A DNA stretch of 64,000 nucleotides from assembly GCF_012849375.1 (NCBI RefSeq), contig NZ_CP051684.1:434001-498000 (forward strand). Reading direction: 5' to 3'. This DNA is from Duganella dendranthematis. GTDB lineage: Bacteria > Pseudomonadota > Gammaproteobacteria > Burkholderiales > Burkholderiaceae_D. The translations under genes were made by a program, and so were the position numbers. This document shows, piece by piece, positions 28,803 through 47,024 of the stretch (position 1 is the first letter of the stretch; every line of letters starts with the position of its first letter). The notes under the pieces were generated by a model. That model saw nothing but the letters and a program-made list of their open reading frames with translations, was not told the DNA's origin and did no database searches.

Positions 28803-29086
28803 TTTTTTCTCCCCTTGGTATCGGCGCCGGCCAGGTCCATCATCCAGGACAGCACGTCTTGCAGCACGGTCGTATTGAGTCCATACCAGATGGTCTGCCC
28901 TTCGCGCCGACGCGTGATCAGGTCCGCTTCCGCCAGCACCGAGAAATGGTGCGACATGGTCGGCTTGCTAATGTCGAACTGCTGCGCCAGATCGCCGGCC
29001 GTCATCTCGCCGTTGCGCAGCAGGCGCAGGATCTCGCGCCGGGCGGGATCGGCAATGGCTTTGAAGGCGCTGTTGGAAGCATTCAT
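28799..29086 (-). CDS. ArsR/SdpR-type winged-helix repressor
   Basis: The 95-residue product is a typical SdpR-group ArsR regulator: FKAIADPARREILRLLRNGE, then the recognition helix region ISKPTMSHHFSVLAEADLI and the wing RRREGQTIWY. It has no metal-binding cysteines, as in SdpR autorepressors. It heads the sdpR-sdpI-hydrolase operon, and two overlapping palindromes just upstream are likely its operator. It probably represses its own operon until relieved through the SdpI-like membrane protein; that is by analogy with Bacillus. Confidence 0.92.
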   Translation of the reverse strand: MNASNSAFKAIADPARREILRLLRNGEMTAGDLAQQFDISKPTMSHHFSVLAEADLITRRREGQTIWYGLNTTVLQDVLSWMMDLAGADTKGRKK

Positions 29087-29096
29087 TAGGCATACA

Positions 29097-29128: not shown

Positions 29129-29153
29129 TTTAAAAGCCGGGTCAAGTCCCGGC
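29129..29153 (-). terminator. Terminator closing the beta-glucan utilisation unit
   Basis: On the minus strand GCCGGG, loop ACTTGA, CCCGGC is followed by TTTTAAAA, beginning 9 bases after the stop codon of the ABC ATPase gene. It ends the ten-gene unit and insulates sdpR. Confidence 0.75.
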
Positions 29154-29161
29154 CTGCGCAA

Positions 29162-30247
29162 TCAAGGCAGCGCAACGCCTTCCTGATCGAACACATGCCA
29201 GCGCTCCGGTGCTACCCGCACCCGCGCCATCTGGCCATTCTTCCACAGCGCCTCGGCATCGACGCGGGCGATGAACTGCGTGGTGCCACCGTCCGGCGTC
29301 AGATAGACGTAGCTGGCGTCGCCCAGCAACTCGGCCGCCTGCACCACCACATGGATGCCGTCGCTGTCGCTGGCCGGCTCCAACGCCATGTGTTCGGCCC
29401 GGACGCCGAGCGTTACGCCGGCGCCGGTCGCCACTCCGGCGCGCGCCGCCACCACCACCAAGGCGCCGCCGGCCACGCGCACCATCATCCGCCCTTGATT
29501 CATCTCTTCAACCCCGCCGCTGATCAGGTTCATCGCCGGCGATCCGAGAAAACCGGCCACAAACAGATTGGCCGGCTTCTGGTACAACTCCAGCGGCGCG
29601 CCGACCTGCTCCACCACACCGCCACGCAGAACCACAATGCGGTCGGCCAACGTCATCGCCTCCACCTGATCGTGGGTCACGTAAATCATCGTGCTACGCA
29701 GCGTGCGGTGCAGGTTCTTTAACTCGATGCGCATCTGCACCCGCAACGCCGCATCCAGATTGGATAGCGGCTCATCGAACAGGAACACCTCCGGCTGGCG
29801 CACAATCGCGCGGCCTATCGCCACGCGCTGCCGCTGGCCGCCGGACAGCTCTTTCGGCTTGCGCAGCAATAGCGGCTCGATGCGCAGGATGGCTGCCGCC
29901 TGCATCACTTTTTCGCGAATGGCCTCCGGCGTCAAACCCGCCAGCTTGAGCGCAAAGCCCATATTGTCGTACACCGTCATGTGCGGATATAGCGCATAAC
30001 TCTGGAACACCATGGCAATGCCGCGCTGCGCCGGCGGCACGTGCGTCATGTCCTTCCCGCCAATCCGCACCGCGCCTTCGTCGACAGTCTCCAATCCGCA
30101 GATCGTGCGCAGCAGCGTCGACTTGCCGCAGCCCGACGGTCCGACGAACACCACGAACTCGCCATCGGCGATGCTCAGATCAATGCCGCGCAAAATCGGT
30201 TGCTGGCCGAAACCCTTGCGGACACCTTGAATCTCCAGTCCTGCCAT
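29162..30247 (-). CDS. ABC sugar importer ATP-binding protein (UgpC/MsmK/MalK type)
   Basis: The 361-residue product has all ATPase motifs: Walker A GPSGCGKST (about residues 37-45), Q-loop FQSYALYPHMTV, signature LSGGQRQR, Walker B VFLFDEPLSNLDA and the H-loop VTHDQ. An OB-like regulatory domain follows from about residue 240, as in the MalK/UgpC group. It energises the two permeases encoded earlier in the unit. It is the last gene of the cluster, 10 bases after the GH94 gene and separated from its permeases by three enzyme genes, an unusual but not unique order. Confidence 0.94.
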   Translation of the reverse strand: MAGLEIQGVRKGFGQQPILRGIDLSIADGEFVVFVGPSGCGKSTLLRTICGLETVDEGAVRIGGKDMTHVPPAQRGIAMVFQSYALYPHMTVYDNMGFALKLAGLTPEAIREKVMQAAAILRIEPLLLRKPKELSGGQRQRVAIGRAIVRQPEVFLFDEPLSNLDAALRVQMRIELKNLHRTLRSTMIYVTHDQVEAMTLADRIVVLRGGVVEQVGAPLELYQKPANLFVAGFLGSPAMNLISGGVEEMNQGRMMVRVAGGALVVVAARAGVATGAGVTLGVRAEHMALEPASDSDGIHVVVQAAELLGDASYVYLTPDGGTTQFIARVDAEALWKNGQMARVRVAPERWHVFDQEGVALP

Positions 30248-30257
30248 GCGCTTCCCC

Positions 30258-33200
30258 TTAACCCAACAGCACTTCGATACGATGCAAGCCGTCGCCCTGC
30301 GACAACGGAATGCGCGCCGCGCCGGCTTGCGGCGCCAGCGACACGCCGTCCAGCGTAACGCCCACTACCTGACCCGCGCAGCCCTGCGGATTGTGCACCA
30401 CGATCTGATAGCTGGCGCCATCCGGCGCGGCGTATTGGATGCTGAACTCCGGCCAGTCATCCGGCACGCGCGGCGACAATACGATGTGTGTGCCAGCCTC
30501 GATGCTGAAGCCCAGCACCGACTCCAGCCCGACGCGGAACATCCAGCCGGACGATCCGGTGTACCACGTCCAGCCGCCGCGTCCCACATGCGGCGCCTCG
30601 CCATAGACGTCTGCCGCAATCACATACGGCTCGACCTGATACACCGCGACAGCGGCCGGATCGAGCGCGTGACTGACAGGGCTGATCATTTCCAGCAGCC
30701 GCGCGGCGCGGTCGCGGCGGCCCGCTTCGGCCATGGCGCGCACCGCCCAGCAGGCGGCATGCGTGTACTGGCCGCCGTTCTCGCGCACGCCGGCCACGTA
30801 GCCTTTGATGTAGCCGGGATCATTGGGCGTGTTGACGAAGGCAGGCGTCAGCAGCCGGATCAGGCCATCGTGTTCGGAGATCAGCCGCTGTTCCATCGCA
30901 TCCAGCGCCTGGCTGGCGCGCTGCGCCGGCGCTGCGCCGGAGATCACCGCCCAGGCCTGAGCCAGCGCGTCGATCTGGCATTCGTCGCTGTCCTTCGAGC
31001 CGATGACGGCGCCGTTGTCGTAGAAGGCGCGGCGATACCAGTCGCCGTCCCAGCCATCGGCATTCAGCGCGTAGTCCAGATGATCGTGGTAGGCGCGGTA
31101 GATGGTCACGCGTGCGTGGTCGCCGCGCTGTTCGCAGATCGGCAGGAAATCCTTGATGATGCGCGACAGGAAAAAGCCCATCCACACGCTCTCGCCCCGC
31201 CCTTCGCGGCCGACGCGGTTCATGCCGTCATTCCAGTCGCCGGTGCCCATCAACGGCAGGCCGTGCGCGCCCTGCGTCAGCGAGCGGTCCAGTGCGCGGC
31301 AGCAGTGTTCATAGATATCGGCGCTTTCGCCTGACAGTTCGGGCTTCAGGTAAACTTCGTCCTCGCCATCCTCCAGGTGCCGCGCGGTCAGGAACGGCTC
31401 CACTTCATCCAGCACGCTGCGGTCGCCGGTGGTGTGGACATAGAAAGCGGTGATGTAGGGCAGCCATAACAGATCGTCCGAGAAGCGCGTGCGCAGCCCC
31501 TGCTCCATCGGCGCGGTGTGCCACCAGTGCAGCACATCGCCTTCCACGAACTGATGGGCGGCGTGGATGCGGATCTGCTGGCGCGTCAGGTCGGGACGGG
31601 CATAAATCATGGCGCTGGAATCCTGCAACTGGTCGCGGTACCCCAGCGCGCCGCCGGACTGATAGAAGGCCGAGCGGCCCCAGATGCGGCAACTCAGGTT
31701 CTGATAGGCCAACCAGCCATTCAGCATCAGGTCAACTGCCGGCGCCGGCGTGCGCACCTGCACCGCGCCGACGGTCTTGCGCCAGAAGGCGGTAATCTCG
31801 TCGTAAGCCTGCTGCACCGCGCCGGGCGTCGAATAGCGCCGTACCAGCTCCAGCGCGGCGTTGCGCTCCACAGTCTCGCCGAGCAGGAAAACGCATTCCA
31901 GCGTGGCGCCCGGCGCCAGCTCCTGCACCACCTGCAAGGCCGCGCAGGGATCGAGTCCCGCGCCGCTGACGCCATCCAGCCGGGGCGCGGCCAATGCCGC
32001 CGGTTGCGCCGTGCTGCCATGCAGGCCGATAAACGCGGCGCGGTCGGCGCTGTGATGCACTGCGGCGTTATCTGCCGCCAAGGCGGCGGCGAAGGTCACG
32101 CCGTCTGCAAATACCCCGGCCAATGGATTGGTCGCCAGCAGCACGCCAGCAGGATCGTGTTCGGTCACGACAAAGCGGCTGCTGTCGGCGGGCGTGCCGC
32201 CCAACACCAGGCGCTGATACGAGAACAGCGACAGGCGGCGCGCGGTATCGCCATGATTGGTCACCCGCACGCGCACCAGTTTCACCGGATCGTGACGTGG
32301 CACGAACATCGTGGTTTGCTGCTCCAACCCATGGCTGATATGGCGGAAGCGCGTATAGCCAAAGCCGTGCGCCGCTTCGTAGCCTGCGCATGCCGTCGCC
32401 GGACCGGGTACCGGCGACCAGAATTGGCCGTTGTCTTCGTCGCGCACATATAACGCCTCGCCATGCGGATCGCGTATCGGATCGTTATACCACGGCGTCA
32501 GGCGATGCACGCGGCTGTTGCGGCTCCAGGTGTAGCCCGCACCGCTGTCGCTGACCAGGAAGCCGAAATGTTCGTTGGAGATGGCGTTGGTCCACGCCAG
32601 CGGCGGGCGATGCAGGCCGCGATCGGCGTCCCAGTCCATGCGGATCACATATTCATCGCCCGCTTCAGTGAAGCCGCCGTTGCCGTTAAAGAAGCGTAGC
32701 GCTGCATCGCTGCTGACTGCGGCCGGGCCGTTGGCCAGCGTGGCTTTGGGCGTATTTGACGCAATCGGCGTGGAAAGCGCTGCGCCATCGGACGTGTCCA
32801 GCGCTGGCAAGCCATCGCGCACCACGAGCAGAGCATTCAGTTCGATATGCGCCAGATCGGCAGTCGACAGGCTGGCATGATCGCGGACGTGCAGACCGTC
32901 GTCAGTGGCCCAGGCGCCGTCGCCCCCCAGCAGCAGCACGTTGAAGTGCAGCCCCATTGCGGCCCAGTAGCGGCGCGCCTGCAGCACCAGTTCCACATCA
33001 GCGTCACCAGGCCGCGTGGCCCACAGCAGCACATCGATCGGCGGCAGGCCGTGCGCCGCCGCGCCAACTTCACCGGTGGCTACGCCCGCGTCAATTGGCG
33101 CGGCGATCAGGCCGCTGGCCACGGCAATTGCCGCTGGTGGCAGACGCAGGCCCGCTTGGCCATACAGCATCGCGCCTGCCAGTCGTTGGCAGTATGCAGC

Positions 33201-34076
33201 CTGCTCCGCGCTCAGGCCAATCTGCTGGCGCAGCGCTTCGCCGGCGGTGCGCGCGGCGGCAAGCAGCGGCAGGCCATCCCCGCTCGCCGCGCTGACCAGC
33301 GCCAGCGCCTGATCGCGACTGGGTGCTGCACCGAGCACGAACACCACGCGCGCCTGTCCGCCCGGGGCCAGCGCCACGCTGCGGCGCAGGCTGAAAGCCG
33401 GGTCCAGCACATTGCCTGCGGTGCCGGACAAGGCGCCATCCATCCCCACCGGCGTGCGCAGATCGCGGCCACGGCCGACAAAGCGCGTGCGGTCCGTTTC
33501 AAAGCCGGCGGCCTCGCCACCGGCGGCGGCATGCACCATCCACAGTCCGGCCTCGCCCTCGCCTCGTGGGCGGCGGTGCGCCAGTAGCGCTCCACTGCCG
33601 GCATCATGCTCGGTCTGCACAAACAATTTTGAGAACGCAGGATGCCCTGCTTCCTCGGACTGGCGGTTCAGCACCACTTCCAGATAGCTGGTCAGCTCAA
33701 TCTTGCGCGCGCGGTCCGACAGGTTACTAAGCAGGATGCTGCGCACCTCCACGTCCCGCTCAGGATCGAGCGCCGCTTCCAGGCGCGCCTCGATGCCATC
33801 AGCGGTGGCGCTGATCCAGCAACTGCCGGCATCACCGCCAGCGGCGCGTTGCGCGGCGACGCCGCCACCGGGCTGCGCGCCCAGCGGCCAATGCCTGCCG
33901 CTTTCGGTATCGCGCAGGTAGAAGAAGTAGCCTTCCGCGTCTTCAATGCGGTCGCCATTCCAGCGCGACAGCGTGGTGTCGCCAACACGGCTGAAGCCCG
34001 TGCCGGCGCCGGTCAGCAAAGTGGTGAAGCTGCCGTTCGACAGCAATTGCGCATGGCGCATCAGTACATTGGTCAT
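30258..34076 (-). CDS. GH94 family phosphorylase, probable 1,2-beta-oligoglucan phosphorylase
   Basis: The 1272-residue product looks like the C-terminal half of cyclic beta-1,2-glucan synthase. An N-terminal supersandwich domain (about 1-270) is followed by a linker. A second supersandwich starts at about 480 (AWTNAISNEHFGFLVSDSGAGYTWS, NDPIRDPHGEALYVRDEDNG). An (alpha/alpha)6 barrel ends the core, with the GH94 catalytic segment MGTGDWNDGMNRVG near residue 948. It has no signal peptide, so it is cytoplasmic. Known free-standing relatives phosphorolyse beta-1,2-glucooligosaccharides to glucose-1-phosphate. The start at 34076 lies 5 bases after the GH1 stop; upstream open codons overlap GH1. 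Other beta-linkages remain possible. Confidence 0.85.
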   Translation of the reverse strand: MTNVLMRHAQLLSNGSFTTLLTGAGTGFSRVGDTTLSRWNGDRIEDAEGYFFYLRDTESGRHWPLGAQPGGGVAAQRAAGGDAGSCWISATADGIEARLEAALDPERDVEVRSILLSNLSDRARKIELTSYLEVVLNRQSEEAGHPAFSKLFVQTEHDAGSGALLAHRRPRGEGEAGLWMVHAAAGGEAAGFETDRTRFVGRGRDLRTPVGMDGALSGTAGNVLDPAFSLRRSVALAPGGQARVVFVLGAAPSRDQALALVSAASGDGLPLLAAARTAGEALRQQIGLSAEQAAYCQRLAGAMLYGQAGLRLPPAAIAVASGLIAAPIDAGVATGEVGAAAHGLPPIDVLLWATRPGDADVELVLQARRYWAAMGLHFNVLLLGGDGAWATDDGLHVRDHASLSTADLAHIELNALLVVRDGLPALDTSDGAALSTPIASNTPKATLANGPAAVSSDAALRFFNGNGGFTEAGDEYVIRMDWDADRGLHRPPLAWTNAISNEHFGFLVSDSGAGYTWSRNSRVHRLTPWYNDPIRDPHGEALYVRDEDNGQFWSPVPGPATACAGYEAAHGFGYTRFRHISHGLEQQTTMFVPRHDPVKLVRVRVTNHGDTARRLSLFSYQRLVLGGTPADSSRFVVTEHDPAGVLLATNPLAGVFADGVTFAAALAADNAAVHHSADRAAFIGLHGSTAQPAALAAPRLDGVSGAGLDPCAALQVVQELAPGATLECVFLLGETVERNAALELVRRYSTPGAVQQAYDEITAFWRKTVGAVQVRTPAPAVDLMLNGWLAYQNLSCRIWGRSAFYQSGGALGYRDQLQDSSAMIYARPDLTRQQIRIHAAHQFVEGDVLHWWHTAPMEQGLRTRFSDDLLWLPYITAFYVHTTGDRSVLDEVEPFLTARHLEDGEDEVYLKPELSGESADIYEHCCRALDRSLTQGAHGLPLMGTGDWNDGMNRVGREGRGESVWMGFFLSRIIKDFLPICEQRGDHARVTIYRAYHDHLDYALNADGWDGDWYRRAFYDNGAVIGSKDSDECQIDALAQAWAVISGAAPAQRASQALDAMEQRLISEHDGLIRLLTPAFVNTPNDPGYIKGYVAGVRENGGQYTHAACWAVRAMAEAGRRDRAARLLEMISPVSHALDPAAVAVYQVEPYVIAADVYGEAPHVGRGGWTWYTGSSGWMFRVGLESVLGFSIEAGTHIVLSPRVPDDWPEFSIQYAAPDGASYQIVVHNPQGCAGQVVGVTLDGVSLAPQAGAARIPLSQGDGLHRIEVLLG

Positions 34077-34081
34077 GGTCG

Positions 34082-35440
34082 TTATACGGTTGGGTTCAGG
34101 CAGGCGCCATTGCTGGCGACGATATCGGCATACAGGTAGGCGCTGTCTTTCAGCGTGCGCTGCTGCGTTTCGAAATTCACATGGACGATGCCGAAGCGCT
34201 TGGCAAAGCCCAGCGACCACTCCAAGTTGTCGAGCAGCGACCACACCATGTAGCCGCGCACATCGACACCCTGCGCCAGCGCATTGCTCAGGGCTTGCAT
34301 ATTCTTGCGCAGACAATCGATCCGCAGCGGATCGTGCACGCGGCCGTTCTCCGCGTTCGGCGGATCGTAGAACGCTGAACCGTTTTCCATGATGTACACC
34401 GGCATGGGGCCATAACGCTGAGTGAAGGTGGTCAGCGTGTCGGTCAGTCCTTGCGGGAAGACTTCCCAGCCGGTTTCGGTGTAGGTGGCTTGCGGCTGGC
34501 GCACCGGGGCCACCTTCAGCGGCCAGTTGGACGGCTCGTTGCGCACCACGCTGCGCGTGTAGTAATTGATGCCGACGAAATCCAGCTTCTGGCCGATCAG
34601 ATCGAAATCGGCCGCCGGCCAGTCCGGCCAGGCGTCGCCGAACATCTGCTTCAGCTCCGGTGGGTAACTGCCGAGAAAAATCGGATCGAGGTACTGGCGA
34701 TTCATATAGGCGTCGGCACGGCGGGTCGCGTCAAGGTCTTCCTGCGACTGGCTGGCGGGGTACTTCGGTTCGATATTGACGACGATGCCGATCTGATGCC
34801 GCCCGATTTCGCGGTAGGCCTGGACGGCACTGCCGTGCGCACGCATCAGGTTATGGCTGGCCAACGCCGCCTCGTGCAGGTTGCGATGCCCCGGCGCCAG
34901 CGTGCCGTGCATGTAGCCGCCGTCCGTCACCACCCAGGGTTCGTTCAGGGTGGCCCAGGATTTGACGCGTCCATCGAAGGCCTTGAACAGGATGCGCGTG
35001 TAGTCCGTGAACCAGTCGGCGATATCGGGATTGAGCCAGCCGCCGCGATCGTCCAGCGCGGCCGGCAAGTCCCAGTGATACAGCGTCACCATCGGCTCGA
35101 TCCCATGCGCCAGCAACTCGTCAATCAGTTTGCTGTAGAAATCCAGCCCGGGCTGATTGACCGCGCCACGCCCCTGCGGCAGGATGCGGCTCCACGATAC
35201 ACTGAAGCGGTAGGCTTTCAGCCCCAGTCTGGCCATCAGCGCCACGTCTTCCTTGTAGCGGTTGTAATGGTCGCAGGCGATGTCACCGTTGTCGCCGTCA
35301 CGCACGTTGCCGGGCACCGCGCAGAAGCGCTGCCAGATACTCGGTCCCGCGCCATCGGCCAGCGGCGAGCCTTCGATCTGGTAGGCGGAAGTGGCGCTAC
35401 CCCAAATGAAATCAGGCGGAAAATGAATCGGTTTGCTCAT
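34082..35440 (-). CDS. GH1 beta-glucosidase
   Basis: The 452-residue GH1 enzyme has an intact TIM barrel. The acid/base Glu is in TLNEP (about residue 167) and the nucleophile Glu in IMENG (about 352). The N-terminus FIWGSATSAYQIEG and the C-terminal WSLLDNLEWSLGF, which lines the glycone site, are typical. There is no signal peptide, so it acts in the cytoplasm, probably on sophorose or other short beta-glucosides left after phosphorolysis. AGGGA precedes the ATG at 35440. It sits 5 bases before the GH94 gene. Confidence 0.95.
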   Translation of the reverse strand: MSKPIHFPPDFIWGSATSAYQIEGSPLADGAGPSIWQRFCAVPGNVRDGDNGDIACDHYNRYKEDVALMARLGLKAYRFSVSWSRILPQGRGAVNQPGLDFYSKLIDELLAHGIEPMVTLYHWDLPAALDDRGGWLNPDIADWFTDYTRILFKAFDGRVKSWATLNEPWVVTDGGYMHGTLAPGHRNLHEAALASHNLMRAHGSAVQAYREIGRHQIGIVVNIEPKYPASQSQEDLDATRRADAYMNRQYLDPIFLGSYPPELKQMFGDAWPDWPAADFDLIGQKLDFVGINYYTRSVVRNEPSNWPLKVAPVRQPQATYTETGWEVFPQGLTDTLTTFTQRYGPMPVYIMENGSAFYDPPNAENGRVHDPLRIDCLRKNMQALSNALAQGVDVRGYMVWSLLDNLEWSLGFAKRFGIVHVNFETQQRTLKDSAYLYADIVASNGACLNPTV

Positions 35441-35459
35441 GTGTCGATATCCCTGAAAG

Positions 35460-38400
35460 TTAAAACGGCGCGCCATCGATATGCAGGACCGCTGGCAGAC
35501 TGGTAATGGCGATCTGGCGGCCTTGCCATGTCACCGGCTGGCCGTTGAGGCTAGACGCAGCAGGAGCGGCAGGCCACGGCCAGGTGTAGATCAAGCCGCC
35601 GGGCGGCATCTTTGCCATCGCCGCAATGCGCAACGTGAGCTGCCCCCCTTGCCGCGCCAGCGTGTAGCTGAGCGGCCCATACGGCGTGCGCAGGCCTTGG
35701 AGGCCGACGCCGTCGCCGGCCAGCCATGCAGTCGGTACGCCCTCCGCCAGCAGCAGCGCGTGATCGGCTTCACGTTCGTAGGCGAAGGAATCGAGCGCGG
35801 CGCGAATGTAGTCCGACGAGATCCAGCCATGCGGCATGTCGCCGAGGAAGCGCGGCGCGCGCGCATCGCGGCCTACCACTTCGGCCCACTGGTTCCAGGC
35901 GCGGGGGCGCTGGTCGGCGTAGAAGTAGTCCAGCAGTTCCGTCGCGCGCTCGCGCCAGCCAAGACGAATGAAGGCGCTAACGTTACGCAGTTCATAGGGC
36001 GTATAGTCTTCCCAGGCTTTGCTGCCGTCGCGGCGCGCGCGGAAGAAGTCCCAGTATTTTTCGTAGGTTGCCTTGAGCATCGCAGCCGGCAGTTGCTGCT
36101 GCTCGCCGCCGGGCGTCAGTGCGATGGTGGAGGATGTCGGGTCGAAGTCGCCCAGCTCCGCCGCTCCGGGCAGGTAGTCGATGCCGTGCGCGCGGGTGCT
36201 GGCCTCCAGCGACGCGTAAAGGTCGTGACGGAATTCGTCGCGCTGTGCTGCCAGACGTTGTGCGGCGGCGGTATGACCGAGGACTGCGGCGACGTCGGCG
36301 GCGTCCTTGTAGCCACGCATGGCCCAGAAATCGTCCCAGTAGGAGTGCATCGGCTTTTCCGAGTAGCCTTCGTGACTGATCGAGGCGGGCATCAGGCCAA
36401 ATAGCGCTTCCCGGCCGGCGGCACGATTGGCGTCCATGCGCTCGGACTGGCGCAGCTTTTCCATGTAGTTTGCGGCAGCCTCGATGCGCGGCCAGGCGGC
36501 GGCCAATGCGGCTTTGTCCTGCGTGTAGCGATGCAGTTCAGCGGCCAGGAATATCAGTTCACCATGGCTGTCGTTTTCCGGCACCGGATCGGCGCCGCGC
36601 GAGTCCACGCAGCACGGCACCTTACCGTTATCGAACTGGTATGGCGCGTACCAGCGCAGATAGCTGGCGGCGGTTTCCGCCTGACCGAGACGCAGCAACG
36701 CCTCGGACATCATGGCGCCATCGCGTATCCAGGAGCGGCGGTAGGACCGGGTTCCTGGCTGCAGCGCGTCGCCTTCACGCGTCATCAGGATGTGGGCCAG
36801 CGAGGAGCGCAGCGTATCGGCCATGTGCTGGCCGGAGGCCGGCAGCGAGAGCTTGACCTGATTGAGTCTGGCGCGCCAGCCGGCGGCGACCTGCTCCTGC
36901 TGTCTGGTGAGCCAACCGGCTGGATCGCGCTGCGGCGCCAGCCTGGCGGGAGCCGGGCTGGCCGCTTCGCCCGCCATCGGTAACACGGCGCCCAGCACCA
37001 CGCTTCCGTGCGGTGGCAGCGTGACGTCATAGCTGAGCGCAGCGGAAGCCATGCCAACGTCATCGTGCAACGCCTGTCCGCTTGCCGGCGACGGGGCATT
37101 GCGCATTGCAGTCGCGCGCTCGGCTGGCAGCAAGCCCGCATCGAACGAAGCCAGCGCGATGCCGGCAGGCTGTGTAAGCGGATAGACCTTGCCGCTGCCG
37201 TTGATGGTAAGCGCCTTGCCGTCCCATTGCAGATCGGTGATCGCGCTATAGCCCCCAGGCGTGTTGAGAAACTGGCGCGGCGCGTTGACCTGGAACGGAC
37301 GCGCAGCTAGCACCAGCGTCAGTTTCTTCACCTTCGCGTCCAGATTGGTCAGCGTGTAACGCGCCAGCAGTTGCGACACTGCTGGGGTGCCGGCGGCAGC
37401 AGCGGTCACGCTCAGCGTCCATGACGGATGGCGCCACGTCACCGTCGGCACTGGCAGGTAACCGTCCTCCAGGCTTTGGCTGACTTCCACGTCGGCCCAG
37501 CTAAATAGTCGGTCACCATCGCGCACAAACGGCTCAAGCGAAAAGCCGCCCTGTTTCGCCTCCAGCGCGCCGTCTTCGGAAATCAGCGCACTGTGGTCGC
37601 CGCCGCCGTCGACGCCAACCAGCGTCCAGTAAGGCTGCTCGCCGCTGAAGCCGCGCGGATACAGGCCGCGTGCCGCGCTGGCGGCCACCGCCGACAGGAA
37701 CTGGTTCGGCGTGGCGCCGTAAGCCAGGTCTTTCAGTTCCACTTCCGCCAGCGCGTAGCCATCGGCATTTGCGGCGGGGCCGGCGTGCAGCGCCAGGCGG
37801 ATGTAGCGCGCCTCCGACTCCGGCAAGCGCAAGGCATCGTCGCCGCCGTTACCTTCTGCGACGCGACGTACCGTGCGCCACTGTTGGGCGTCGTCGGAAA
37901 GGGCTACATCATAGCGACTGGCATAACGGCGGCCTTGCCAGTGCAGCAGCAGGCCGCCGAATTCGCGCTGCGCGCCGAGGTCGATGACCAGCTGCTGCTC
38001 GCCGCCGGCACTGCGCCAGGCGCTGGCTGGGTTGCCGTCCAGGGCCAGCGCCGCACCACCGCGCGGCAATGCCGATGATGCGCGCGCCGTCGGCTGCGGC
38101 CACACAGCCGGCGTTGGCGGCAAAGCGCGAATCGTCAGCTGCCGCAAGTAGATCGAACCTTTGCCGCCGCCACTGCCGGCGCTGACGACGAATTCCAGCT
38201 TGTCGGCGTGGCTCAGGTTGCGATCTTTGGTCGGTCCCCAGGCGAATGCGATCTGGCGTTTCTTGACTCGCACCAGTTGCCATTGTTTGGGGAAGGCATA
38301 GTTTTGCTGCTGGAACCACCAGACGTTGTCGCCGCTGGCATCGGTCAGCTTGAACTCGAAATGGTTGGCCGGCGCGTCGGCCCGCACATAGAAAGAAATT

Positions 38401-38642
38401 TCGTAATTGTCCGGCAAATCGAGCGGCAGGCTGCGGCGCGCGAAGGCGTATCCTCCCTTGCCGGCGAAGTCGAAATCAAGCCGCAGGCCGCCGTCCGCGG
38501 CACTGGCGCGGGATTGCACGCCGTCGGAGGCCTGCGCCTGCCATGCTGCGATGTTGGAAAAATCGTCCAGCACGCGTGGCGACGCGGCCAGCGCGGCGCC
38601 CGCAGTCAGCATCAGGGCCAGGAATGCGCTCGGCATCTTCAT
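35460..38642 (-). CDS. Secreted discoidin-domain six-hairpin glycosidase-like protein, family uncertain
   Basis: The 1060-residue product has a signal peptide (about 1-20) and a jelly-roll domain like a carbohydrate-binding module (about 21-175). An F5/8-type discoidin (CBM32-like) domain follows (about 185-305, with ASSALPRGG, ALDGNPASAWRS, YIRLALHAG), then a beta-sandwich (about 310-590). The (alpha/alpha)6 barrel (about 600-970) carries SYRRSWIRDGAMMSEALLRLG, PENDSHGELIFLAAEL and SYWDDFWAMRG. Acidic candidates for catalysis are in WIRDG, NDSHGE and YWDD. I cannot assign a CAZy family. By context it is a periplasmic or surface enzyme trimming beta-glucan fragments. Its start overlaps the permease stop (ATGA). 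Confidence 0.85.
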   Translation of the reverse strand: MKMPSAFLALMLTAGAALAASPRVLDDFSNIAAWQAQASDGVQSRASAADGGLRLDFDFAGKGGYAFARRSLPLDLPDNYEISFYVRADAPANHFEFKLTDASGDNVWWFQQQNYAFPKQWQLVRVKKRQIAFAWGPTKDRNLSHADKLEFVVSAGSGGGKGSIYLRQLTIRALPPTPAVWPQPTARASSALPRGGAALALDGNPASAWRSAGGEQQLVIDLGAQREFGGLLLHWQGRRYASRYDVALSDDAQQWRTVRRVAEGNGGDDALRLPESEARYIRLALHAGPAANADGYALAEVELKDLAYGATPNQFLSAVAASAARGLYPRGFSGEQPYWTLVGVDGGGDHSALISEDGALEAKQGGFSLEPFVRDGDRLFSWADVEVSQSLEDGYLPVPTVTWRHPSWTLSVTAAAAGTPAVSQLLARYTLTNLDAKVKKLTLVLAARPFQVNAPRQFLNTPGGYSAITDLQWDGKALTINGSGKVYPLTQPAGIALASFDAGLLPAERATAMRNAPSPASGQALHDDVGMASAALSYDVTLPPHGSVVLGAVLPMAGEAASPAPARLAPQRDPAGWLTRQQEQVAAGWRARLNQVKLSLPASGQHMADTLRSSLAHILMTREGDALQPGTRSYRRSWIRDGAMMSEALLRLGQAETAASYLRWYAPYQFDNGKVPCCVDSRGADPVPENDSHGELIFLAAELHRYTQDKAALAAAWPRIEAAANYMEKLRQSERMDANRAAGREALFGLMPASISHEGYSEKPMHSYWDDFWAMRGYKDAADVAAVLGHTAAAQRLAAQRDEFRHDLYASLEASTRAHGIDYLPGAAELGDFDPTSSTIALTPGGEQQQLPAAMLKATYEKYWDFFRARRDGSKAWEDYTPYELRNVSAFIRLGWRERATELLDYFYADQRPRAWNQWAEVVGRDARAPRFLGDMPHGWISSDYIRAALDSFAYEREADHALLLAEGVPTAWLAGDGVGLQGLRTPYGPLSYTLARQGGQLTLRIAAMAKMPPGGLIYTWPWPAAPAASSLNGQPVTWQGRQIAITSLPAVLHIDGAPF

Positions 38643-39454
38643 CCCTTGACGCTCCCCACCAGCAGACCCTGGATGTAGTAGCGCTGCAGACCAAGGAACA
38701 ACAGCAGCACCGGCAGCACGGTCAGCACCGACCCGGCCATCATCAGTTCATTGTCCTGCACATGCTCGCGCGACAGCGATGCCAATGCCACCGGCAGCGT
38801 GTACAGCTCCTTGTCGGTCAACACGATCAAAGGCCACATGAAATCGTTCCAGGTGCCGAGGAAGGTGAAGATCCCCAGTGTGACCAGGATGGGCGTCAGC
38901 AGCGGCAGCACAATGATGCGGAAGATCTGGAACTCGCTGGCACCGTCCATGCGCGCCGCTTCCAGCAAGGCGTCCGGGATCGTCAACGCATACTGGCGCA
39001 CCAGGAAGATGCCGAAGATGCCCGCCATCGCCGGCACCAGCACCGCACCGTAGGTATTCACCAGTCCCATATATTTCAGCAGCAGGAACAGCGGCAGCAT
39101 CGCCACCTGGCTCGGAATCACCAGCGCCCCCAGCATCACCTTGAAGATCCGTTCGCGGCCCTGAAAGCGCAGCTTGGCGAACGCATAGCCGGCGCTGACG
39201 TTGAACAGCAGCGACAGCACCGTCGCCGCGCACGACAGCAGTACGCTGTTCAGCAGGTACTGGCCGATGCCGGCGTGGCTGAACAACTCGCGGTAGTTGA
39301 ACAGCGTTGGCGACTTTGGCAGAACCTGCAACGGAAATGCACTGGACTCGCCGGGCGTCATCAGCGACGACGACAACATCCACAGCAGCGGGAACAGCGT
39401 CAGCAAGCCCGCGACCAGCATCAGGCCATTGAGCAGCAAGGCACGCGGTTTCAT
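38639..39454 (-). CDS. ABC sugar importer permease, MalG type
   Basis: The 271-residue product has six predicted membrane helices and the permease EAA-loop (EAARMDGASEFQIFRIIVLPLLTP). It begins MKPRALLLNGLMLVAGLLTL, typical of MalG/LacG/UgpE proteins. GGGAGG supports the ATG at 39454, which overlaps the MalF-type stop (ATGA). It forms the inner-membrane channel with its partner permease for an oligosaccharide, most likely the beta-glucan fragments handled by the cluster. Confidence 0.95.
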   Translation of the reverse strand: MKPRALLLNGLMLVAGLLTLFPLLWMLSSSLMTPGESSAFPLQVLPKSPTLFNYRELFSHAGIGQYLLNSVLLSCAATVLSLLFNVSAGYAFAKLRFQGRERIFKVMLGALVIPSQVAMLPLFLLLKYMGLVNTYGAVLVPAMAGIFGIFLVRQYALTIPDALLEAARMDGASEFQIFRIIVLPLLTPILVTLGIFTFLGTWNDFMWPLIVLTDKELYTLPVALASLSREHVQDNELMMAGSVLTVLPVLLLFLGLQRYYIQGLLVGSVKG

Positions 39455-40326
39455 ACCTCGCCTCCCTTGGCAAAGCGCAGTTGCAGCAGCGTGACGCCGA
39501 ACATGATCGCAAACAGTACGAACGCCACCGCTGATGCGGCGCCCAGGTTCCACCATTTGAAGCCTTGCTCATACATGAAATACAGCACGCTGACGGTGCT
39601 CTGCACCGGCCCGCCCTGCGTCATCACATACGGTTCGGCGAACAGCTGGAAGTAGCCGGTCATGCTGAGGATGCTGACCATCAGCAGCGTCGGCCCGAGC
39701 ATCGGCCAGGTCACGAAGCGAAACTGCTGCCACGTGCCCGCGCCGTCCAGTCCTGCCGCCTCGTACAGATCCTCGGGAATGCTTTGCAGCCCGGCCAGGA
39801 AGATGATCATGTTGTAGCCGAAGTTCTTCCACACCGCGAACAGGATAATTGCCGGCATCGCCCACTGCGGATCATTGAGCCAGTCGATCGCCGGTATTCC
39901 CAGTTCTTGCAAGCCGTAGTTGATCATGCCGTAGCGGGTGTGCAGCAGGTAGCGCCAGATCACGGCCACCGCCACCAGCGAGGTCACCACCGGCGCGAAG
40001 AACGCGGTGCGGAACAGGCCCTTGAACCACGTCAGCCGCGAATGCAGCAGCAGCGCGGCGCCCAGCGAAGCGGCGATCGACAGCGGCACGCCGACCACCA
40101 CGAAATACAGCGTATTACCCAGCGCCTGCCAGAACAGCGGCGTTTGCAGCAGCTGGATGTAGTTGCGCAGGCCGACAAAGCGCAGGTTGCGCAGATCGGC
40201 CAGTGCGTAGATGTCGAAATCGGTCAGGCTCATGATCAGCGCAGCGAGCACCGGCAGGAAGAAGAACACGCTGATGACCAGCAGCGCAGGCGCGACGAAG
40301 CACCAGGCGGCACGTTGCGAATTCAT
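39451..40326 (-). CDS. ABC sugar importer permease, MalF type
   Basis: The 291-residue product has six membrane helices and an EAA-loop (EAAGLDGAGTWQQFRFVTWP) of the MalF/UgpA permease group. It begins directly with a membrane helix, without the extra N-terminal helices of E. coli MalF. Its start overlaps the binding-protein stop by 4 bases, and its stop overlaps the MalG-type start, giving a tightly coupled importer set. Confidence 0.95.
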   Translation of the reverse strand: MNSQRAAWCFVAPALLVISVFFFLPVLAALIMSLTDFDIYALADLRNLRFVGLRNYIQLLQTPLFWQALGNTLYFVVVGVPLSIAASLGAALLLHSRLTWFKGLFRTAFFAPVVTSLVAVAVIWRYLLHTRYGMINYGLQELGIPAIDWLNDPQWAMPAIILFAVWKNFGYNMIIFLAGLQSIPEDLYEAAGLDGAGTWQQFRFVTWPMLGPTLLMVSILSMTGYFQLFAEPYVMTQGGPVQSTVSVLYFMYEQGFKWWNLGAASAVAFVLFAIMFGVTLLQLRFAKGGEV

Positions 40327-41588
40327 CGCGCCTCCTTCCGCGCCAGCATCCAGCGGCGCTTTTCCAGTATGTGATCGGCCTTGGCGTCCAGCAGTTCAGC
40401 GGCCTGCGCGACGGTCAGTTCGCCATGCGTCACGCGTTCGGCCACCAGCCGCATTTCTGTGGCGATCTGCTCCCACTCCGGCACCTTGGGTGTTGGCCGC
40501 ACGCGCTCGAACTGCTGCGCAAAGGCGCGTGCGTAGACGTCTTGCGCCAGTTTGGGAAGGGTCCAGTTGCTGCGTCGCGGCGGCAGGTCGCCGGTCAGTT
40601 CATTGAAGCGCGCCATGCTGTCGGTACGCGACAGGTATTCGATCAATTGCCACGCTTCCGTCTTGTGGCGCGACGACGCCGCCAGCACCAGGCTGGAGCC
40701 GCCGGCCACCGAGGCAGCCGGTCCCGCTGGTCCTGGCAGGATGGCGGTCATCCACTTGTCCTGCTGCTCGGCCGGCAGCCGGCGTTTGAACTCGCCCATA
40801 TTCCAGGGGCCCGAGATGTAGAACGATACATAACCCATGCCGAATTCATGATAGACGTTGGTGATGCGGTTGAGCGGCGCCAGCTTCTGCGCGTACATGT
40901 CGGCATACAGCTGTAGGCTGCGCTGGAAGCCGGCGCTGCGGAAATTGCCATAGCGGTCGCCGTTACGCAGCAGCGGTTCGTCCTGCTGTAACGCCAGTGC
41001 CAGCAGCGGTTCGAATTCATCGCTCGGCAGCAGGATGGCGTAGTTGTCCGGACCGACCATGCGCTTGATGGCGGTCATCGCCTTCATCCACCCCGCCCAC
41101 GTTTGTGGCGGCGTGTTGAAGCCGGCGCGTTTCAGCATGTCCTGGCGGTAGAACATCACCCGCGTGTCCACGTACCACGGTAGTCCCCACAGCCTGCCGT
41201 TCACCACATTGGTGTCCCAGATGCCGGGGAAGTAGTCATCCTGCCTGACCACCGCCGATGCGGCGACATAGCCGTCCAGCGGCGCCAGTGCGTTCAGCAC
41301 TTCAAGCTCCGGTATCCAGGTATTCCCGAGTTGAAAAACATCCGGCATTACTTCGCCGGCAAAAGCGGTCAGCAGCTTCTCGTGGGCGGCGGTCCATGGC
41401 AGTTGCTGGACTTCGACACGCACACCGGGATGCGTGCGCTCGAATTCCGGAATCAGCGCCGTGACCACTTCGCCCTCGCGCCCCATGGCCCAGAACTTCA
41501 GCACCACGCCCTGCTCCTGCCGCTGCGAACAGGACGACAGCAGCGCGACCAGCGACAGCAACAGTGCGATGGAGACCAGTCGCGTCAT
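40323..41588 (-). CDS. ABC sugar importer solute-binding lipoprotein
   Basis: The 421-residue product (family 1 extracellular solute-binding) has a lipoprotein signal peptide with lipobox LSSC near residue 20. It then shows the usual two-lobe pattern (VVLKFWAMGREGEVV, then PDVFQLGNTWIPEL, then GLPWYVDTRVMFYR). It captures the oligosaccharide in the periplasm and passes it to the MalF/MalG-type permeases. A rather long helical C-terminal tail (about 375-421) carries an ELTVAQAAELLDAKADHIL segment. The ATG at 41588 overlaps the GH144-type stop (ATGA). Confidence 0.94.
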   Translation of the reverse strand: MTRLVSIALLLSLVALLSSCSQRQEQGVVLKFWAMGREGEVVTALIPEFERTHPGVRVEVQQLPWTAAHEKLLTAFAGEVMPDVFQLGNTWIPELEVLNALAPLDGYVAASAVVRQDDYFPGIWDTNVVNGRLWGLPWYVDTRVMFYRQDMLKRAGFNTPPQTWAGWMKAMTAIKRMVGPDNYAILLPSDEFEPLLALALQQDEPLLRNGDRYGNFRSAGFQRSLQLYADMYAQKLAPLNRITNVYHEFGMGYVSFYISGPWNMGEFKRRLPAEQQDKWMTAILPGPAGPAASVAGGSSLVLAASSRHKTEAWQLIEYLSRTDSMARFNELTGDLPPRRSNWTLPKLAQDVYARAFAQQFERVRPTPKVPEWEQIATEMRLVAERVTHGELTVAQAAELLDAKADHILEKRRWMLARKEAR

Positions 41589-43003
41589 TTTTCCAGCCAG
41601 CCGCCGGTGAAGCCGGCGCGTTGCAGTCCAAGGCGGATCGCCGGGTGCTTGCGCATGGCGCGCCATACCAGCTCGCTGCGGTAGTTCTCCGTCATGGCGA
41701 TGATCGGCCCCTGGTCGATGCCAAGGTAATCCTTGTCCACCCAGCCCTTGCCGGCCACCACCTGCCCTTGCGACACCGGCACGTTGTAGGTAAAGCTGGG
41801 ATTGAAGGCGTCGTAGAAGCCGTACTCGCCGTAGATGAAGTCTCCGTAGCGCTGCTTCATTTCCAGCACCGCAGGCACCACGATCTCCGGCGCGAACGGC
41901 AGTGACGCAGCGGCGGCGGTTGGCGCCAGCGTGCAGTCGTCATAGGCCTTCAGGCCACCGATGCCACGCGCCGAATAGGTGCGGAATGGCAGCTGCGTGC
42001 CGTTGTACTCCAGCACCTGGTCGACTGGACCGTCGCTGGCGGTGATCCCCCAGACGTTCTGGCCATAGCCCTTGCAGCGCAGCGGATTGGCCACCGCGTA
42101 AGCCTGCTGTGCGTATGTCGCGCGGCGGCTGTTTTCGAAGTAGTCGTAGCCGCGCGTCCGCATGTAGTCGTCGCGAATGCCGCGAAAATCAATCCACACA
42201 TGGCTGTACTGGTGCACGAACAGCGATGGAAAGCCAAGGTGTTCCTCGCCGCGCTGGCCTTGCAGGCTTTTGTCGTAGGTGCTGGTCCACGCTTTCCAGG
42301 CGTCCGGCTGTACCGGATGCGTCGGTGATCCCAGCGCCAGCACGTAAATCAGCATCGCTTCGTTATAGCCCTTCCAGTCGTAGCCGTGGAAGCCGGATTC
42401 CGGTTCCCATCCCAGTGCGATGGAGGGTTTGCGCGTCTGCGCCCAGGTCCAGTCGACCCGCTCATAGATCTCTTTCGCCAGCTTGCGAATTTCCTGTTCG
42501 CCGGCGTCGCTGCCGTCAAAATAGGATTCGCAGAACAGCGCCCCGGCCAGGAACAGTGCCGTGTCCACCGTCGACAGTTCCACCTTGTCGTTGTAGCGCA
42601 GGCCGGTCTTCATGTCGAGGAAGTGATAGAAGAAACCCTTGTAGCCGCTGGCGACGGTGCCTTTGCCATCGCCCTGCGGCGCGTTGCGGAAGAAGCGCAG
42701 CGTGGCCAGTACCCGGTCGCGCGCCTGCTGGCGCGTAATGTACCCGCGCTCGACGCCGATCGGATAGGCGGTCAGGCCGAAGCCCACCGCCGCCACGCTG
42801 GAAAAGGACGGCGTCGGATACCGGTCCGGAACCAGGCCATTGGCGGGATTGGTGGTATCCCAGAAAAAGCGGAAGGTGCGCTGTTGCAGGTCGTCGAACA
42901 CCGGCGGCAACGCTGTATCGCGCGCCGCCGCTGCTCCCGCGCCAGCCAGCGCGCAGGAAGCCAGCAACAGATTCAGGACGGTATGACGGGCGTGTGGTCG
43001 CAT
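41585..43003 (-). CDS. Secreted GH144-type glucanase (Pfam glycoamylase), probable endo-beta-1,2-glucanase
   Basis: The 472-residue product belongs to the bacterial glycoamylase (PF10091) group, which includes the GH144 endo-beta-1,2-glucanases. Visible stretches are QQRTFRFFWDTTNPANGLVP, GFFYHFLDMKTG, WEPESGFHGYDWKGYNEAML, FPSLFVHQYSHVWIDFRGI and YGEYGFYDAFNPSF. The signal peptide contains LLASC, which could be a lipobox (Cys near residue 17), so it may be an anchored lipoprotein. AAGGA precedes the ATG at 43003. It should cleave polymeric beta-1,2-glucan into oligosaccharides outside or in the periplasm. The linkage is inferred from family and from the GH94 partner. Confidence 0.85.
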   Translation of the reverse strand: MRPHARHTVLNLLLASCALAGAGAAAARDTALPPVFDDLQQRTFRFFWDTTNPANGLVPDRYPTPSFSSVAAVGFGLTAYPIGVERGYITRQQARDRVLATLRFFRNAPQGDGKGTVASGYKGFFYHFLDMKTGLRYNDKVELSTVDTALFLAGALFCESYFDGSDAGEQEIRKLAKEIYERVDWTWAQTRKPSIALGWEPESGFHGYDWKGYNEAMLIYVLALGSPTHPVQPDAWKAWTSTYDKSLQGQRGEEHLGFPSLFVHQYSHVWIDFRGIRDDYMRTRGYDYFENSRRATYAQQAYAVANPLRCKGYGQNVWGITASDGPVDQVLEYNGTQLPFRTYSARGIGGLKAYDDCTLAPTAAAASLPFAPEIVVPAVLEMKQRYGDFIYGEYGFYDAFNPSFTYNVPVSQGQVVAGKGWVDKDYLGIDQGPIIAMTENYRSELVWRAMRKHPAIRLGLQRAGFTGGWLEK

Positions 43004-43013
43004 GCGGCGGTCC

Positions 43014-45863: not shown

Positions 45864-45924
45864 GGTTGTCTCCTGATTTTTTTGTATGTATCTAGGTCAT
45901 GAAGCTGTGGTGCTGCGGTCGTGC

Positions 45925-46938
45925 TTAGGGTGAACTGGACTCTCCCGTCGAGGCGCGCAACACCAGTTCGGCGGCCAGCATTTCCATGCTGGCCTCACTG
46001 CGGCCGGCGTCACCGATAGCGGCCAGCAGGCGCTCCAGCGACTGCACGCCCAGCTCGGCGATGGGCACGCGCACCGTGGTCAGCGCCGGGCTGACATAGC
46101 GCGCGATGGGAATATCATCGAAGCCGGCCAGCGCCATGTCGCGCGGCACCTGCAGGCCGCCTTGGGTCAGCGTCAGCAGCGCGCCGATGGCCATCATGTC
46201 GTTGGCGGCGAACAGCGCGGCGGGACGCTGGTCGGCCGGCATAGCCAACAGCGCACGGCCGACCGCCTCGCCGGACTGCTCGGAGAAATCGCCTTCGAAC
46301 ACGCGCGGCTTTGCGCCTGCCGCCAGCCGCGCCAGCGCCGCGTGGTAGCCGCGCAGCCGTTCCTGCGCTTCGTAGTTGCCGGCCGGGCCGGCGAGGAAGG
46401 CGATGTCTTGGTAGCCGCAGGCCACCAGATGCGCCACCATGGCGTGGGCGGCGCTGTAATTGTCGACCGACAGCGACGGATAGTGAGCGCCGCCGCTGGC
46501 GGTGTTCATCAGCACGATCGGCAGCTCGTCCGGCAGGTTATCGGACAGGAAGGCGGCGTCGACGTGCGGCGACATCACCAGCAGGCCGTCGACGCGGCCA
46601 CGCATGGCGCGCAACGCCAGCGCCGCTTCGTCGGCATCGCCGTGCAGGCTGGAGACCATCAGCTGCAGGCCGTGGCGGCGCGCGGCGCCGTCGATGCCGC
46701 GGATCATCTCCGAGAAGAATTCGCCGTACAGGTCAGGCAGCAGCACGCCGATGGTGTTGGTGGTGCTGGTGGTCAGGCTGCGCGCGCCAACATGCGGCAT
46801 GTAGCGCATGCGCTTGACCACGTCCAGCACGTGCTTGCGGGTGTCGTCGGTAATGCTGGCGTGGCCGTTGAGCGCGCGCGACACCGACGCCACCGACACG
46901 CCCGCCGCCTGCGCCACATCCTTGATGGTTACCGCCAT
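45925..46938 (-). CDS. LacI family transcriptional regulator of the beta-glucan cluster
   Basis: The 337-residue product has the LacI helix-turn-helix and hinge (TIKDVAQAAGVSVASVSRAL, then the hinge helix near residues 50-60). A periplasmic-binding-protein-like effector domain follows, with GVLLPDLYGEFFSEMIRGID and ALAGFDDIPIARYVSPALTT. It likely binds a glucooligosaccharide and represses the ten-gene unit that it heads. Two perfect 16-base palindromes upstream are the evident operators, so it also controls itself. Confidence 0.95.
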   Translation of the reverse strand: MAVTIKDVAQAAGVSVASVSRALNGHASITDDTRKHVLDVVKRMRYMPHVGARSLTTSTTNTIGVLLPDLYGEFFSEMIRGIDGAARRHGLQLMVSSLHGDADEAALALRAMRGRVDGLLVMSPHVDAAFLSDNLPDELPIVLMNTASGGAHYPSLSVDNYSAAHAMVAHLVACGYQDIAFLAGPAGNYEAQERLRGYHAALARLAAGAKPRVFEGDFSEQSGEAVGRALLAMPADQRPAALFAANDMMAIGALLTLTQGGLQVPRDMALAGFDDIPIARYVSPALTTVRVPIAELGVQSLERLLAAIGDAGRSEASMEMLAAELVLRASTGESSSP

Positions 46939-46955: not shown

Positions 46956-47024
46956 ATGTAACCGGTTACATCGTTATCTAAAAATAAAACCGGCTCGATC
47001 AATGACGAATGTAACCGGTTACAT
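46956..47024 (-). promoter_or_regulatory. lacI-cluster promoter between two LacI-type operators
   Basis: Two identical palindromes ATGTAACCGGTTACAT lie at 46956-46971 and 47009-47024, centre to centre 53 bases apart, about five helical turns. Between them, on the minus strand, a plausible promoter reads TTGATC (-35, 46997-47002), 16 bases, TAGATA (-10, 46975-46980). The proximal operator then covers the expected start of transcription. The layout suits repression by looping or by direct blockage. Confidence 0.75.

What the first reader, a model, noticed from the sequence alone, without database searches (positions are those of the whole stretch)
29162..46938. Ten-gene locus that looks like a beta-1,2-glucan utilisation system in one transcription unit
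Seen: ten same-strand genes (lacI, Oar-like TonB receptor, glycoamylase/GH144-type glucanase, binding protein, two permeases, discoidin six-hairpin protein, GH1, GH94, ATPase), most overlapping or under 20 bases apart, with an operator pair at one end and a terminator at the other. Known: GH144 enzymes cut beta-1,2-glucan, and free GH94 relatives of cyclic glucan synthase phosphorolyse 1,2-beta-oligoglucans. Inference: the set degrades osmoregulated periplasmic glucans of other bacteria. It combines a TonB outer-membrane receptor with an ABC importer and a phosphorylase, different from SusCD-type loci.
Basis: partly seen in the sequence, partly recalled or inferred. Interest (0 to 1): 0.7.

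Follow-up and report, generated by a model that had tools for sequence, protein, structure and literature searches.

The report
Beta-1,2-glucan eating operon with unassigned enzyme
Ten neighbouring genes in a Duganella-like bacterium look like a kit for importing and breaking down beta-1,2-glucan, a sugar polymer that many bacteria make, and they include one conserved enzyme-like protein whose job is not assigned.

Summary
The ten genes are real, on one strand, mostly overlapping by 4 bases or under 20 bases apart, with two identical TGTAACCGGTTACA operators upstream of lacI. The host is Duganella-like. The glucanase belongs with GH144: its best solved relative is XcSGL (XCC2207), a proven beta-1,2-glucanase, and the clan-defining positions are kept. 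The binding protein is related to Lin1841, which binds beta-1,2-glucooligosaccharides. The GH94 is not of the characterised SOGP type; [quoted passage not shown] A comparable combination (GH144, TonB, ABC importer, CGS-type GH94) is in print for Ignavibacterium album, so this is a variant of a known kind. Less known is the 1060-aa six-hairpin protein. It was found beside GH144 in 9 of 9 assessable loci outside this genome selected on it alone. Its model (pLDDT 91) is closest to a GH15 and a GH65 enzyme (tied), and invariant glutamates sit in the two loops that hold the GH15 catalytic pair. I suggest that it trims alpha-linked glucose from decorated or alpha-1,6-cyclised beta-1,2-glucans; this is inference. 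Whether the target is foreign or own glucan is open: the host carries a CGS gene.

The parts
47010..47023 (.). distal LacI-type operator TGTAACCGGTTACA
   Evidence: a pair is present in 17 of 17 Oxalobacteraceae loci with lacI, at most 2 mismatches (family by genus name)
46957..46970 (.). proximal LacI-type operator TGTAACCGGTTACA
45925..46938 (-). LacI-family regulator, 337 aa
   Evidence: Pfam PF00356, PF13377
43014..45863 (-). Oar-like TonB-dependent outer-membrane receptor, 949 aa
   Evidence: Pfam PF13620, PF25183, PF00593
41585..43024 (-). GH144 endo-beta-1,2-glucanase, 479 aa, with a signal-like N-terminus (by eye)
   Evidence: PF10091 277 bits; best PDB match XCC2207/XcSGL 8xul E 4e-188
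40323..41588 (-). ABC importer solute-binding protein, 421 aa
   Evidence: PF01547; PDB 3uor E 2e-148, Lin1841 5ysb E 2e-56
39451..40326 (-). ABC permease (MalF/UgpA-like), 291 aa
   Evidence: PF00528; NCBIfam
38639..39454 (-). ABC permease (MalG/UgpE-like), likely start 39454
   Evidence: PF00528; start
35460..38642 (-). 1060-aa protein with a signal-like N-terminus (by eye): N-terminal jelly roll, discoidin (CBM32-like) domain, beta-sandwich and (alpha/alpha)6 six-hairpin domain, GH15-like
   Evidence: model pLDDT 91; VIA-align
34082..35440 (-). GH1 beta-glucosidase, no signal peptide seen by eye
   Evidence: PF00232 535 bits; TIGR03356 over cut-off
30258..34076 (-). free-standing CGS-type GH94 phosphorylase, about 1272 aa, two PF06165 stretches plus catalytic domain, no signal peptide seen by eye
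   Evidence: PF17167, PF06165; CGS 1088 bits; start; tree
29162..30247 (-). MalK/UgpC-type ABC ATPase, 361 aa
   Evidence: PF00005, PF08402, PF17912; NF008653 over cut-off
29134..29155 (-). weak terminator-like hairpin followed by UUUU
   Evidence: 14 of 200 shuffles fold as well

Best explanation
The locus is a LacI-controlled catabolic operon for beta-1,2-glucan. Inferred steps: the Oar-like TonB receptor takes up beta-1,2-glucans or long fragments; exported GH144 cuts them in the periplasm; the exported six-hairpin protein removes a linkage that GH144 cannot cut, most likely alpha-linked glucose (the alpha-1,6 closure of some bacterial glucans, or an alpha-glucosyl decoration); the ABC importer carries beta-1,2-glucooligosaccharides in; cytoplasmic CGS-type GH94 phosphorolyses them to glucose 1-phosphate; GH1 splits sophorose to glucose. 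LacI sits on two operators 53 bases apart and releases them when a sugar product accumulates. Shown here: gene content, order, conservation, operators, family placement, conservation of catalytic positions in GH144 and of the DWNDG motif in GH94, and the predicted fold and invariant acids of the six-hairpin protein. Not shown: any activity, transport, induction or location. The stated confidence is for the beta-1,2-glucan core; for the alpha-linkage role of the six-hairpin protein alone I would say about 0.35.
For: GH144: 630 bits to XcSGL, which hydrolyses beta-1,2-glucan (PMC12102758: abstract, passages, part 1 of the discussion and section 4.2 read). Its clan-defining E239, F286 and Y367 correspond to E222, F269 and Y350 here, and the CpSGL E142 general-base position is D154 (read by eye; the 8xul chain has Gln at the E239 place, which I take for an engineered mutant, while CpSGL 5gzk has Glu there). 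SBP: 498 bits to 3uor, 195 bits to Lin1841, which binds Sop3-5 (PMC12369401 passages). GH94: 1088 bits to CGS C-terminal halves against 362 for chitobiose and 354 for cellobiose phosphorylase; DWNDG present. Free GH94s of these loci form one clade (9 rows, two of them the same gene, 100/100) beside CGS. Linkage selected on the six-hairpin protein, not on GH144: GH144 in 9 of 9 assessable loci outside the window's genome; in the family sample (n=116) 5 of 5 six-hairpin genomes have GH144 and free GH94 close by (at least two of these five contigs also gave loci). Operator pair kept in 17 of 17 Oxalobacteraceae loci with lacI. A GH1 specific for beta-1,2-glucooligosaccharides is known from S. griseus in a cluster with a Lin1841 homolog (PMC12369401).
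Against: No activity is measured. The nearest SBP structure (3uor) bears only the name 'ABC transporter sugar binding protein'; I recall it as a maltose-type protein of Xanthomonas. The GH1 specificity residues (Gln229, Trp291, Met171 of SGR_2426) were not mapped; the best GH1 structures are named simply beta-glucosidase. GH94 is found within the fetched stretch in only 22 of 55 full-flank loci, so phosphorolysis is not part of every version, or its gene lies elsewhere. Outside Oxalobacteraceae the receptor match is only 29-40% identical in 35 of the 43 loci that have one.
Confidence: 0.77

Rival explanations
1. The operon recycles the host's own cyclic beta-1,2-glucan (same chemistry, own substrate) rather than scavenging foreign glucan.
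For: The host has a full CGS gene, as have all 5 six-hairpin genomes of the family sample, the host included. In 5 other family genomes a GH144 gene lies about 10-17 kb from CGS on one contig (G061, G083, G028, G076, G107).
Against: 5 of 15 six-hairpin genomes, from 2 genera, have neither CGS nor OpgG/D, so the system also exists where neither of these glucan-making routes was found; other synthases (OpgH) were not searched for. A TonB receptor and an operator-controlled operon fit uptake from outside.
Confidence: 0.3
2. The operon serves another glucan or oligosaccharide (cello-, laminari- or malto-oligosaccharides) and the GH144 likeness misleads.
For: GH1 and CUT1 importers are general; the SBP's best structure is named only 'ABC transporter sugar binding protein'.
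Against: Of the solved relatives, Lin1841 is the next best for the SBP, CGS the best for GH94, and a beta-1,2-glucanase the best for the PF10091 protein: three pointers to the same linkage.
Confidence: 0.08
3. The six-hairpin protein is not an alpha-glycosidase but an exo-acting enzyme on beta-1,2-glucooligosaccharides, or a glycan-binding protein that has lost activity.
Confidence: 0.4

Closest known systems
Ignavibacterium album beta-1,2-glucan cluster (IALB_1177-1187; PMC8861115, passages read)
   Same: GH144 enzymes, TonB-dependent transporter, ABC importer with a Lin1841-like binding protein, free GH94 that resembles the C-terminal domain of CGS; a similar pathway was proposed there as speculation
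   Different: Here: LacI with operator pair, Oar-like receptor, GH1 (there a GH35 transglycosylase and, in one passage, a GH3), and the six-hairpin protein; LacI, GH1 and a six-hairpin protein are not mentioned in the passages read
Listeria innocua lin1839-1841 cluster (PMC3960220 search listing; PMC12369401 passages)
   Same: Binding protein of the same kind and a GH94 phosphorylase for beta-1,2-glucooligosaccharides
   Different: Gram-positive, GH3 glucosidase, SOGP-type GH94 (its relative LpSOGP scores only 18 bits against the GH94 profile of this locus); no GH144 or TonB receptor mentioned in the passages read
Streptomyces griseus SGR_2422-2427 cluster (PMC12369401: abstract, passages, section 2.6 and part 1 of the discussion read)
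   Same: Binding protein close to Lin1841, ABC transporter genes, GH1 beta-1,2-glucosidase, an endo-beta-1,2-glucanase homolog of a related family
   Different: GH193 instead of GH144; no GH94, receptor or six-hairpin protein mentioned in what I read
[quoted passage not shown]
   Same: The GH94 protein aligns over the whole C-terminal half, residues 1534-2798 of 8rf9
   Different: No glucosyltransferase and no GH189 domain; the gene stands alone in a catabolic setting
GH15 enzymes (dextran dextrinase 9ju0, isomaltose glucohydrolase 5z3a)
   Same: Fold, and loop positions of the two conserved glutamates of the six-hairpin protein
   Different: 16% and 14% identity; no Pfam GH15 match for the window protein; extra N-terminal jelly roll and discoidin domain

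Membership tests
GH144 (clan GH-S) | PF10091 domain over cut-off and nearest to a characterised GH144 enzyme | tested here: met
   276.9 bits, cut-off 27; XcSGL 630 bits, CpSGL 160, H744_1c0222 44
GH144 (clan GH-S) | Equivalents of XcSGL E239, F286, Y367 and an acidic residue at CpSGL E142 | tested here: met
   E222, F269, Y350, D154 by eye on the alignments (one numbering offset per chain fits every named residue; the 8xul chain has Gln at E239); residue roles from PMC12102758
GH144 (clan GH-S) | Hydrolysis of beta-1,2-glucan | not testable with these tools
   needs purified protein
[quoted passage not shown]
   LpSOGP 5h3z E 0.0035, 18 bits; CGS 1088 bits
[quoted passage not shown]
   two PF06165 stretches; DWNDG ending in D1030-G1031 of the 1352-aa frame, invariant in the 8 rows of A2; that this Asp is the catalytic one is recalled for GH94
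[quoted passage not shown]
   only the C-terminal part is present; the full enzyme is encoded elsewhere in the genome
CUT1 sugar ABC importer | Binding protein, two permeases, ATPase with TOBE/MalK C-terminal domain | tested here: met
Lin1841-type sophorooligosaccharide-binding protein | Homology to Lin1841 and binding of Sop3-5 | tested here: inconclusive
   homology 195 bits; ligand-binding residues not mapped, binding not testable
GH1 beta-1,2-glucosidase (SGR_2426 type) | GH1 domain | tested here: met
   PF00232 534.9 bits
GH1 beta-1,2-glucosidase (SGR_2426 type) | Gln229, Trp291, Met171 equivalents | not tested
   9U98 is not among the 60 of 193 matches shown, and no alignment to it was seen
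SusCD-type polysaccharide utilisation locus | SusD-like lipoprotein paired with SusC receptor | tested here: not met
   no SusD family among the Pfam matches of the ten genes at E 0.01
GH15 (six-hairpin protein) | GH15 profile match | tested here: not met
   Pfam: no GH15 match for the window protein at E 0.1; 3 of 48 members match weakly. NCBIfam: two GH15-type models at E about 1e-4 but 21 bits against cut-offs over 740
GH15 (six-hairpin protein) | (alpha/alpha)6 barrel with Glu in the alpha5-alpha6 and alpha11-alpha12 loops | tested here: met
   E758 and E921, invariant in 48 of 48, lie in the loops 734-767 and 910-938 of the model by my count of its twelve barrel helices; interpolation from 5z3a residues 178 and 335 gives 761 and 913 (the roles of these two are inferred from the mutant titles and recall). 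Residues were not superposed; 13 acidic positions of 598-954 are invariant as one residue
GH65, GH78, GH116, GH133 (six-hairpin protein) | Fold likeness above GH15 | tested here: inconclusive

The most novel reading that the evidence does not exclude
The six-hairpin protein founds a new glycosidase family, distantly related to GH15, that cuts the alpha-1,6 linkage of alpha-1,6-cyclised beta-1,2-glucans (made for example by Xanthomonas, Ralstonia and Cereibacter) or alpha-glucosyl decorations, so that diverse bacteria can eat glucans that other bacteria use as envelope and virulence polymers; and the GH94 is a CGS module that was turned from chain-length control to catabolism.
Probability: 0.2. 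Interest if true: 0.65.

Novelty: new variant of a known kind. Interest (0 to 1): 0.45.

Why it matters
Beta-1,2-glucans shape osmotic adaptation, symbiosis and disease in several Gram-negative bacteria (PMC11842490 passages), yet few enzymes and gene clusters that consume them are characterised. Loci of this type occur in Beta- and Gammaproteobacteria and in records labelled Acidobacteria, Myxococcaceae, Gemmatimonadetes and Rokuibacteriota, and they tie an unassigned, highly conserved enzyme-like protein to this substrate. That gives a concrete candidate for a missing activity: nothing in the passages I read names an enzyme that degrades the alpha-1,6 link of alpha-cyclised glucans.

Tried and rejected
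SOGP membership of the GH94 was tested and rejected. A first tree had four rows in a wrong reading frame and was discarded; one search is the corrected tree. Acidobacterial origin (my first guess from the Oar receptor) was rejected: the nearest loci are Duganella. Paralogs of the six-hairpin protein with 33-34% identity (L104-L107) show no SBP, permease pair, GH144 or GH94 of this locus in the fetched stretches (neighbours of two of the four scanned), so they do not inform on substrate. Of the genes downstream of the six-hairpin gene in relatives, seven (from L038, L108, L109, L116) were scanned and none is a phosphorylase; in L057 the gene there is a GH94. In one search one of the 47 loci flagged with an operator (L068) is a coordinate artefact, which leaves 46 of 56; the tested stretches sum to 30,189 bases (about 10 kb of it from L068), and the control is 35 matches at up to 3 mismatches in 1.11 Mb of the same loci outside them. 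The consensus scans found no more promoter-like or terminator-like sites than shuffles (3 against 2.9; 15 against 13.8). The list comes from a second look at Foldseek matches; rows within 1 Z are tied, families that are not listed are not excluded, and model residues before 328 are barely tested there. Searches in print: XCC2207 (1 paper), GH194 with GH144 (1), XAC2310 (0), Lin1841 or sophorooligosaccharide (6), GH144 with TonB (4), GH144 with GH94 (12), sophorose with TonB-dependent and phosphorylase (1), plus three broader ones of which only the top of the list was seen for two. None was aimed at the six-hairpin protein by name. The library holds open-licence papers only, and no supplement was read.

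Full report
What is there. The window comes from a 6.53-Mb single-contig genome whose nearest relatives for this locus are Duganella margarita and other Duganella (97% identity in the glucanase). Ten minus-strand genes at 29162-46938 encode a LacI regulator, an Oar-like TonB receptor, a PF10091 glucanase, a solute-binding protein, two permeases, a 1060-aa protein with a signal-like N-terminus, a discoidin domain and a weak six-hairpin signal, a GH1 beta-glucosidase, a GH94 protein and a MalK/UgpC-type ATPase. With corrected starts most neighbours overlap by 4 bases or lie under 20 bases apart, which fits one transcription unit. The flanks are unrelated genes: marC, purA and a histidyl-tRNA synthetase-like gene on one side, an SdpI-like gene, a hydrolase and uvrB on the other. 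Two perfect TGTAACCGGTTACA sites stand in front of lacI and nowhere else in the genome at up to one mismatch. The hairpin behind the ATPase gene is only weakly better than shuffles. Export signals were judged by eye; no predictor was run.

Conservation. Of the 55 with full flanks, 54 carry the binding protein and both permeases, 49 an Oar-like receptor, 48 LacI, 48 the six-hairpin protein, 38 GH1, 22 GH94 and 18 the ATPase. The commonest order, in 12 of 55, is that of the window up to GH94, where the fetched stretch ends. The operator pair is kept in 17 of 17 Oxalobacteraceae loci with lacI (at most 2 mismatches); over all 56 loci with a same-strand lacI match, 46 have at least one site at up to 3 mismatches once an artefact is removed. 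Because these loci were chosen by the glucanase, I ran the reverse test: 398 genomes of the phylum were searched with the six-hairpin alignment alone. Eleven have a full-length copy, one of them the window's. In 9 of the other 10 the GH144 gene lies a few genes upstream; the tenth copy starts at base 214 of its contig, and that genome has its GH144 about 3.3 kb from the start of another contig. In a sample of 116 genomes of the family, 5 have the full-length six-hairpin protein and all 5 have GH144 within about 3 kb, a free GH94 within about 9 kb and a full CGS elsewhere.

Substrate. Three proteins point to the same linkage. The glucanase scores 630 bits with XCC2207, that is XcSGL, a GH144 enzyme with measured activity on beta-1,2-glucan (PMC12102758); the residues that define the clan and the proposed general base position are kept. 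The binding protein is nearest to 3uor and then to Lin1841, which binds beta-1,2-glucooligosaccharides (PMC12369401). [quoted passage not shown] It is therefore a free-standing CGS C-terminal half and not an SOGP in the sequence sense, although SOGP also has two N-terminal sandwich domains (PMC5309861 passages). In a tree of 20 rows the 9 free GH94 rows of these loci (8 distinct genes) form one clade beside CGS (100/100), and one free GH94 from another genus (G012) sits inside the CGS clade, a second origin. CGS is known to phosphorolyse its glucan as a step of synthesis (PMC11842490 passages); here the module stands among catabolic genes.

Own or foreign glucan. The window's genome has a full CGS gene and no OpgG/D. 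Among the 15 genomes with the full-length six-hairpin protein (the window's, 4 others of the family, 10 of the phylum), 5 have neither CGS nor OpgG/D; four of these five are of one genus, and OpgH was not searched for. There the system most likely serves foreign glucan; in the window's host both uses remain possible.

What is known. Beta-1,2-glucan clusters are in print for L. innocua, S. griseus and I. album; the last has GH144, a TonB-dependent transporter, a Lin1841-like importer and a CGS-type GH94 (PMC8861115, passages read). The present locus is a variant with LacI control, an Oar-like receptor, GH1 and the six-hairpin protein. The ten paper searches listed under Tried and rejected showed no account of the six-hairpin protein in this setting, but none of them was aimed at it by name, so its absence from print is not shown.

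Verdict.

Noticed in passing
G000:C1:414670-415368 (outside the window; L122:9596-10942): A second GH144-like gene, 47% identical, about 61 kb from the window's copy and with none of the other locus genes in the fetched 20 kb; G089 has two GH144 genes about 65 kb apart on one contig.
   Followed up: partly
[quoted passage not shown]
   Followed up: yes
G061, G083, G028, G076, G107: In five family genomes a GH144 gene lies about 10-17 kb from CGS on one contig, which suggests a link between making and turning over the glucan.
   Followed up: no
L128 (G012:C15:284255-288121): A free-standing GH94 that falls inside the CGS clade and lies about 8 kb from a GH144 gene: an independent origin of a free CGS module.
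   Followed up: partly
   Followed up: partly
L108:12131-17381: IlvD/Edd-type dehydratase and glucose-6-phosphate dehydrogenase genes close to the locus, on the opposite strand, in an unnamed relative of the same class.
   Followed up: no
window 6710-10516: IcmF/TssM-like gene of a type VI secretion system.
   Followed up: no
window 28167-29090: SdpI/DUF1648-like membrane protein gene preceded by a frame that looks like a small ArsR-type repressor (read by eye).
   Followed up: no
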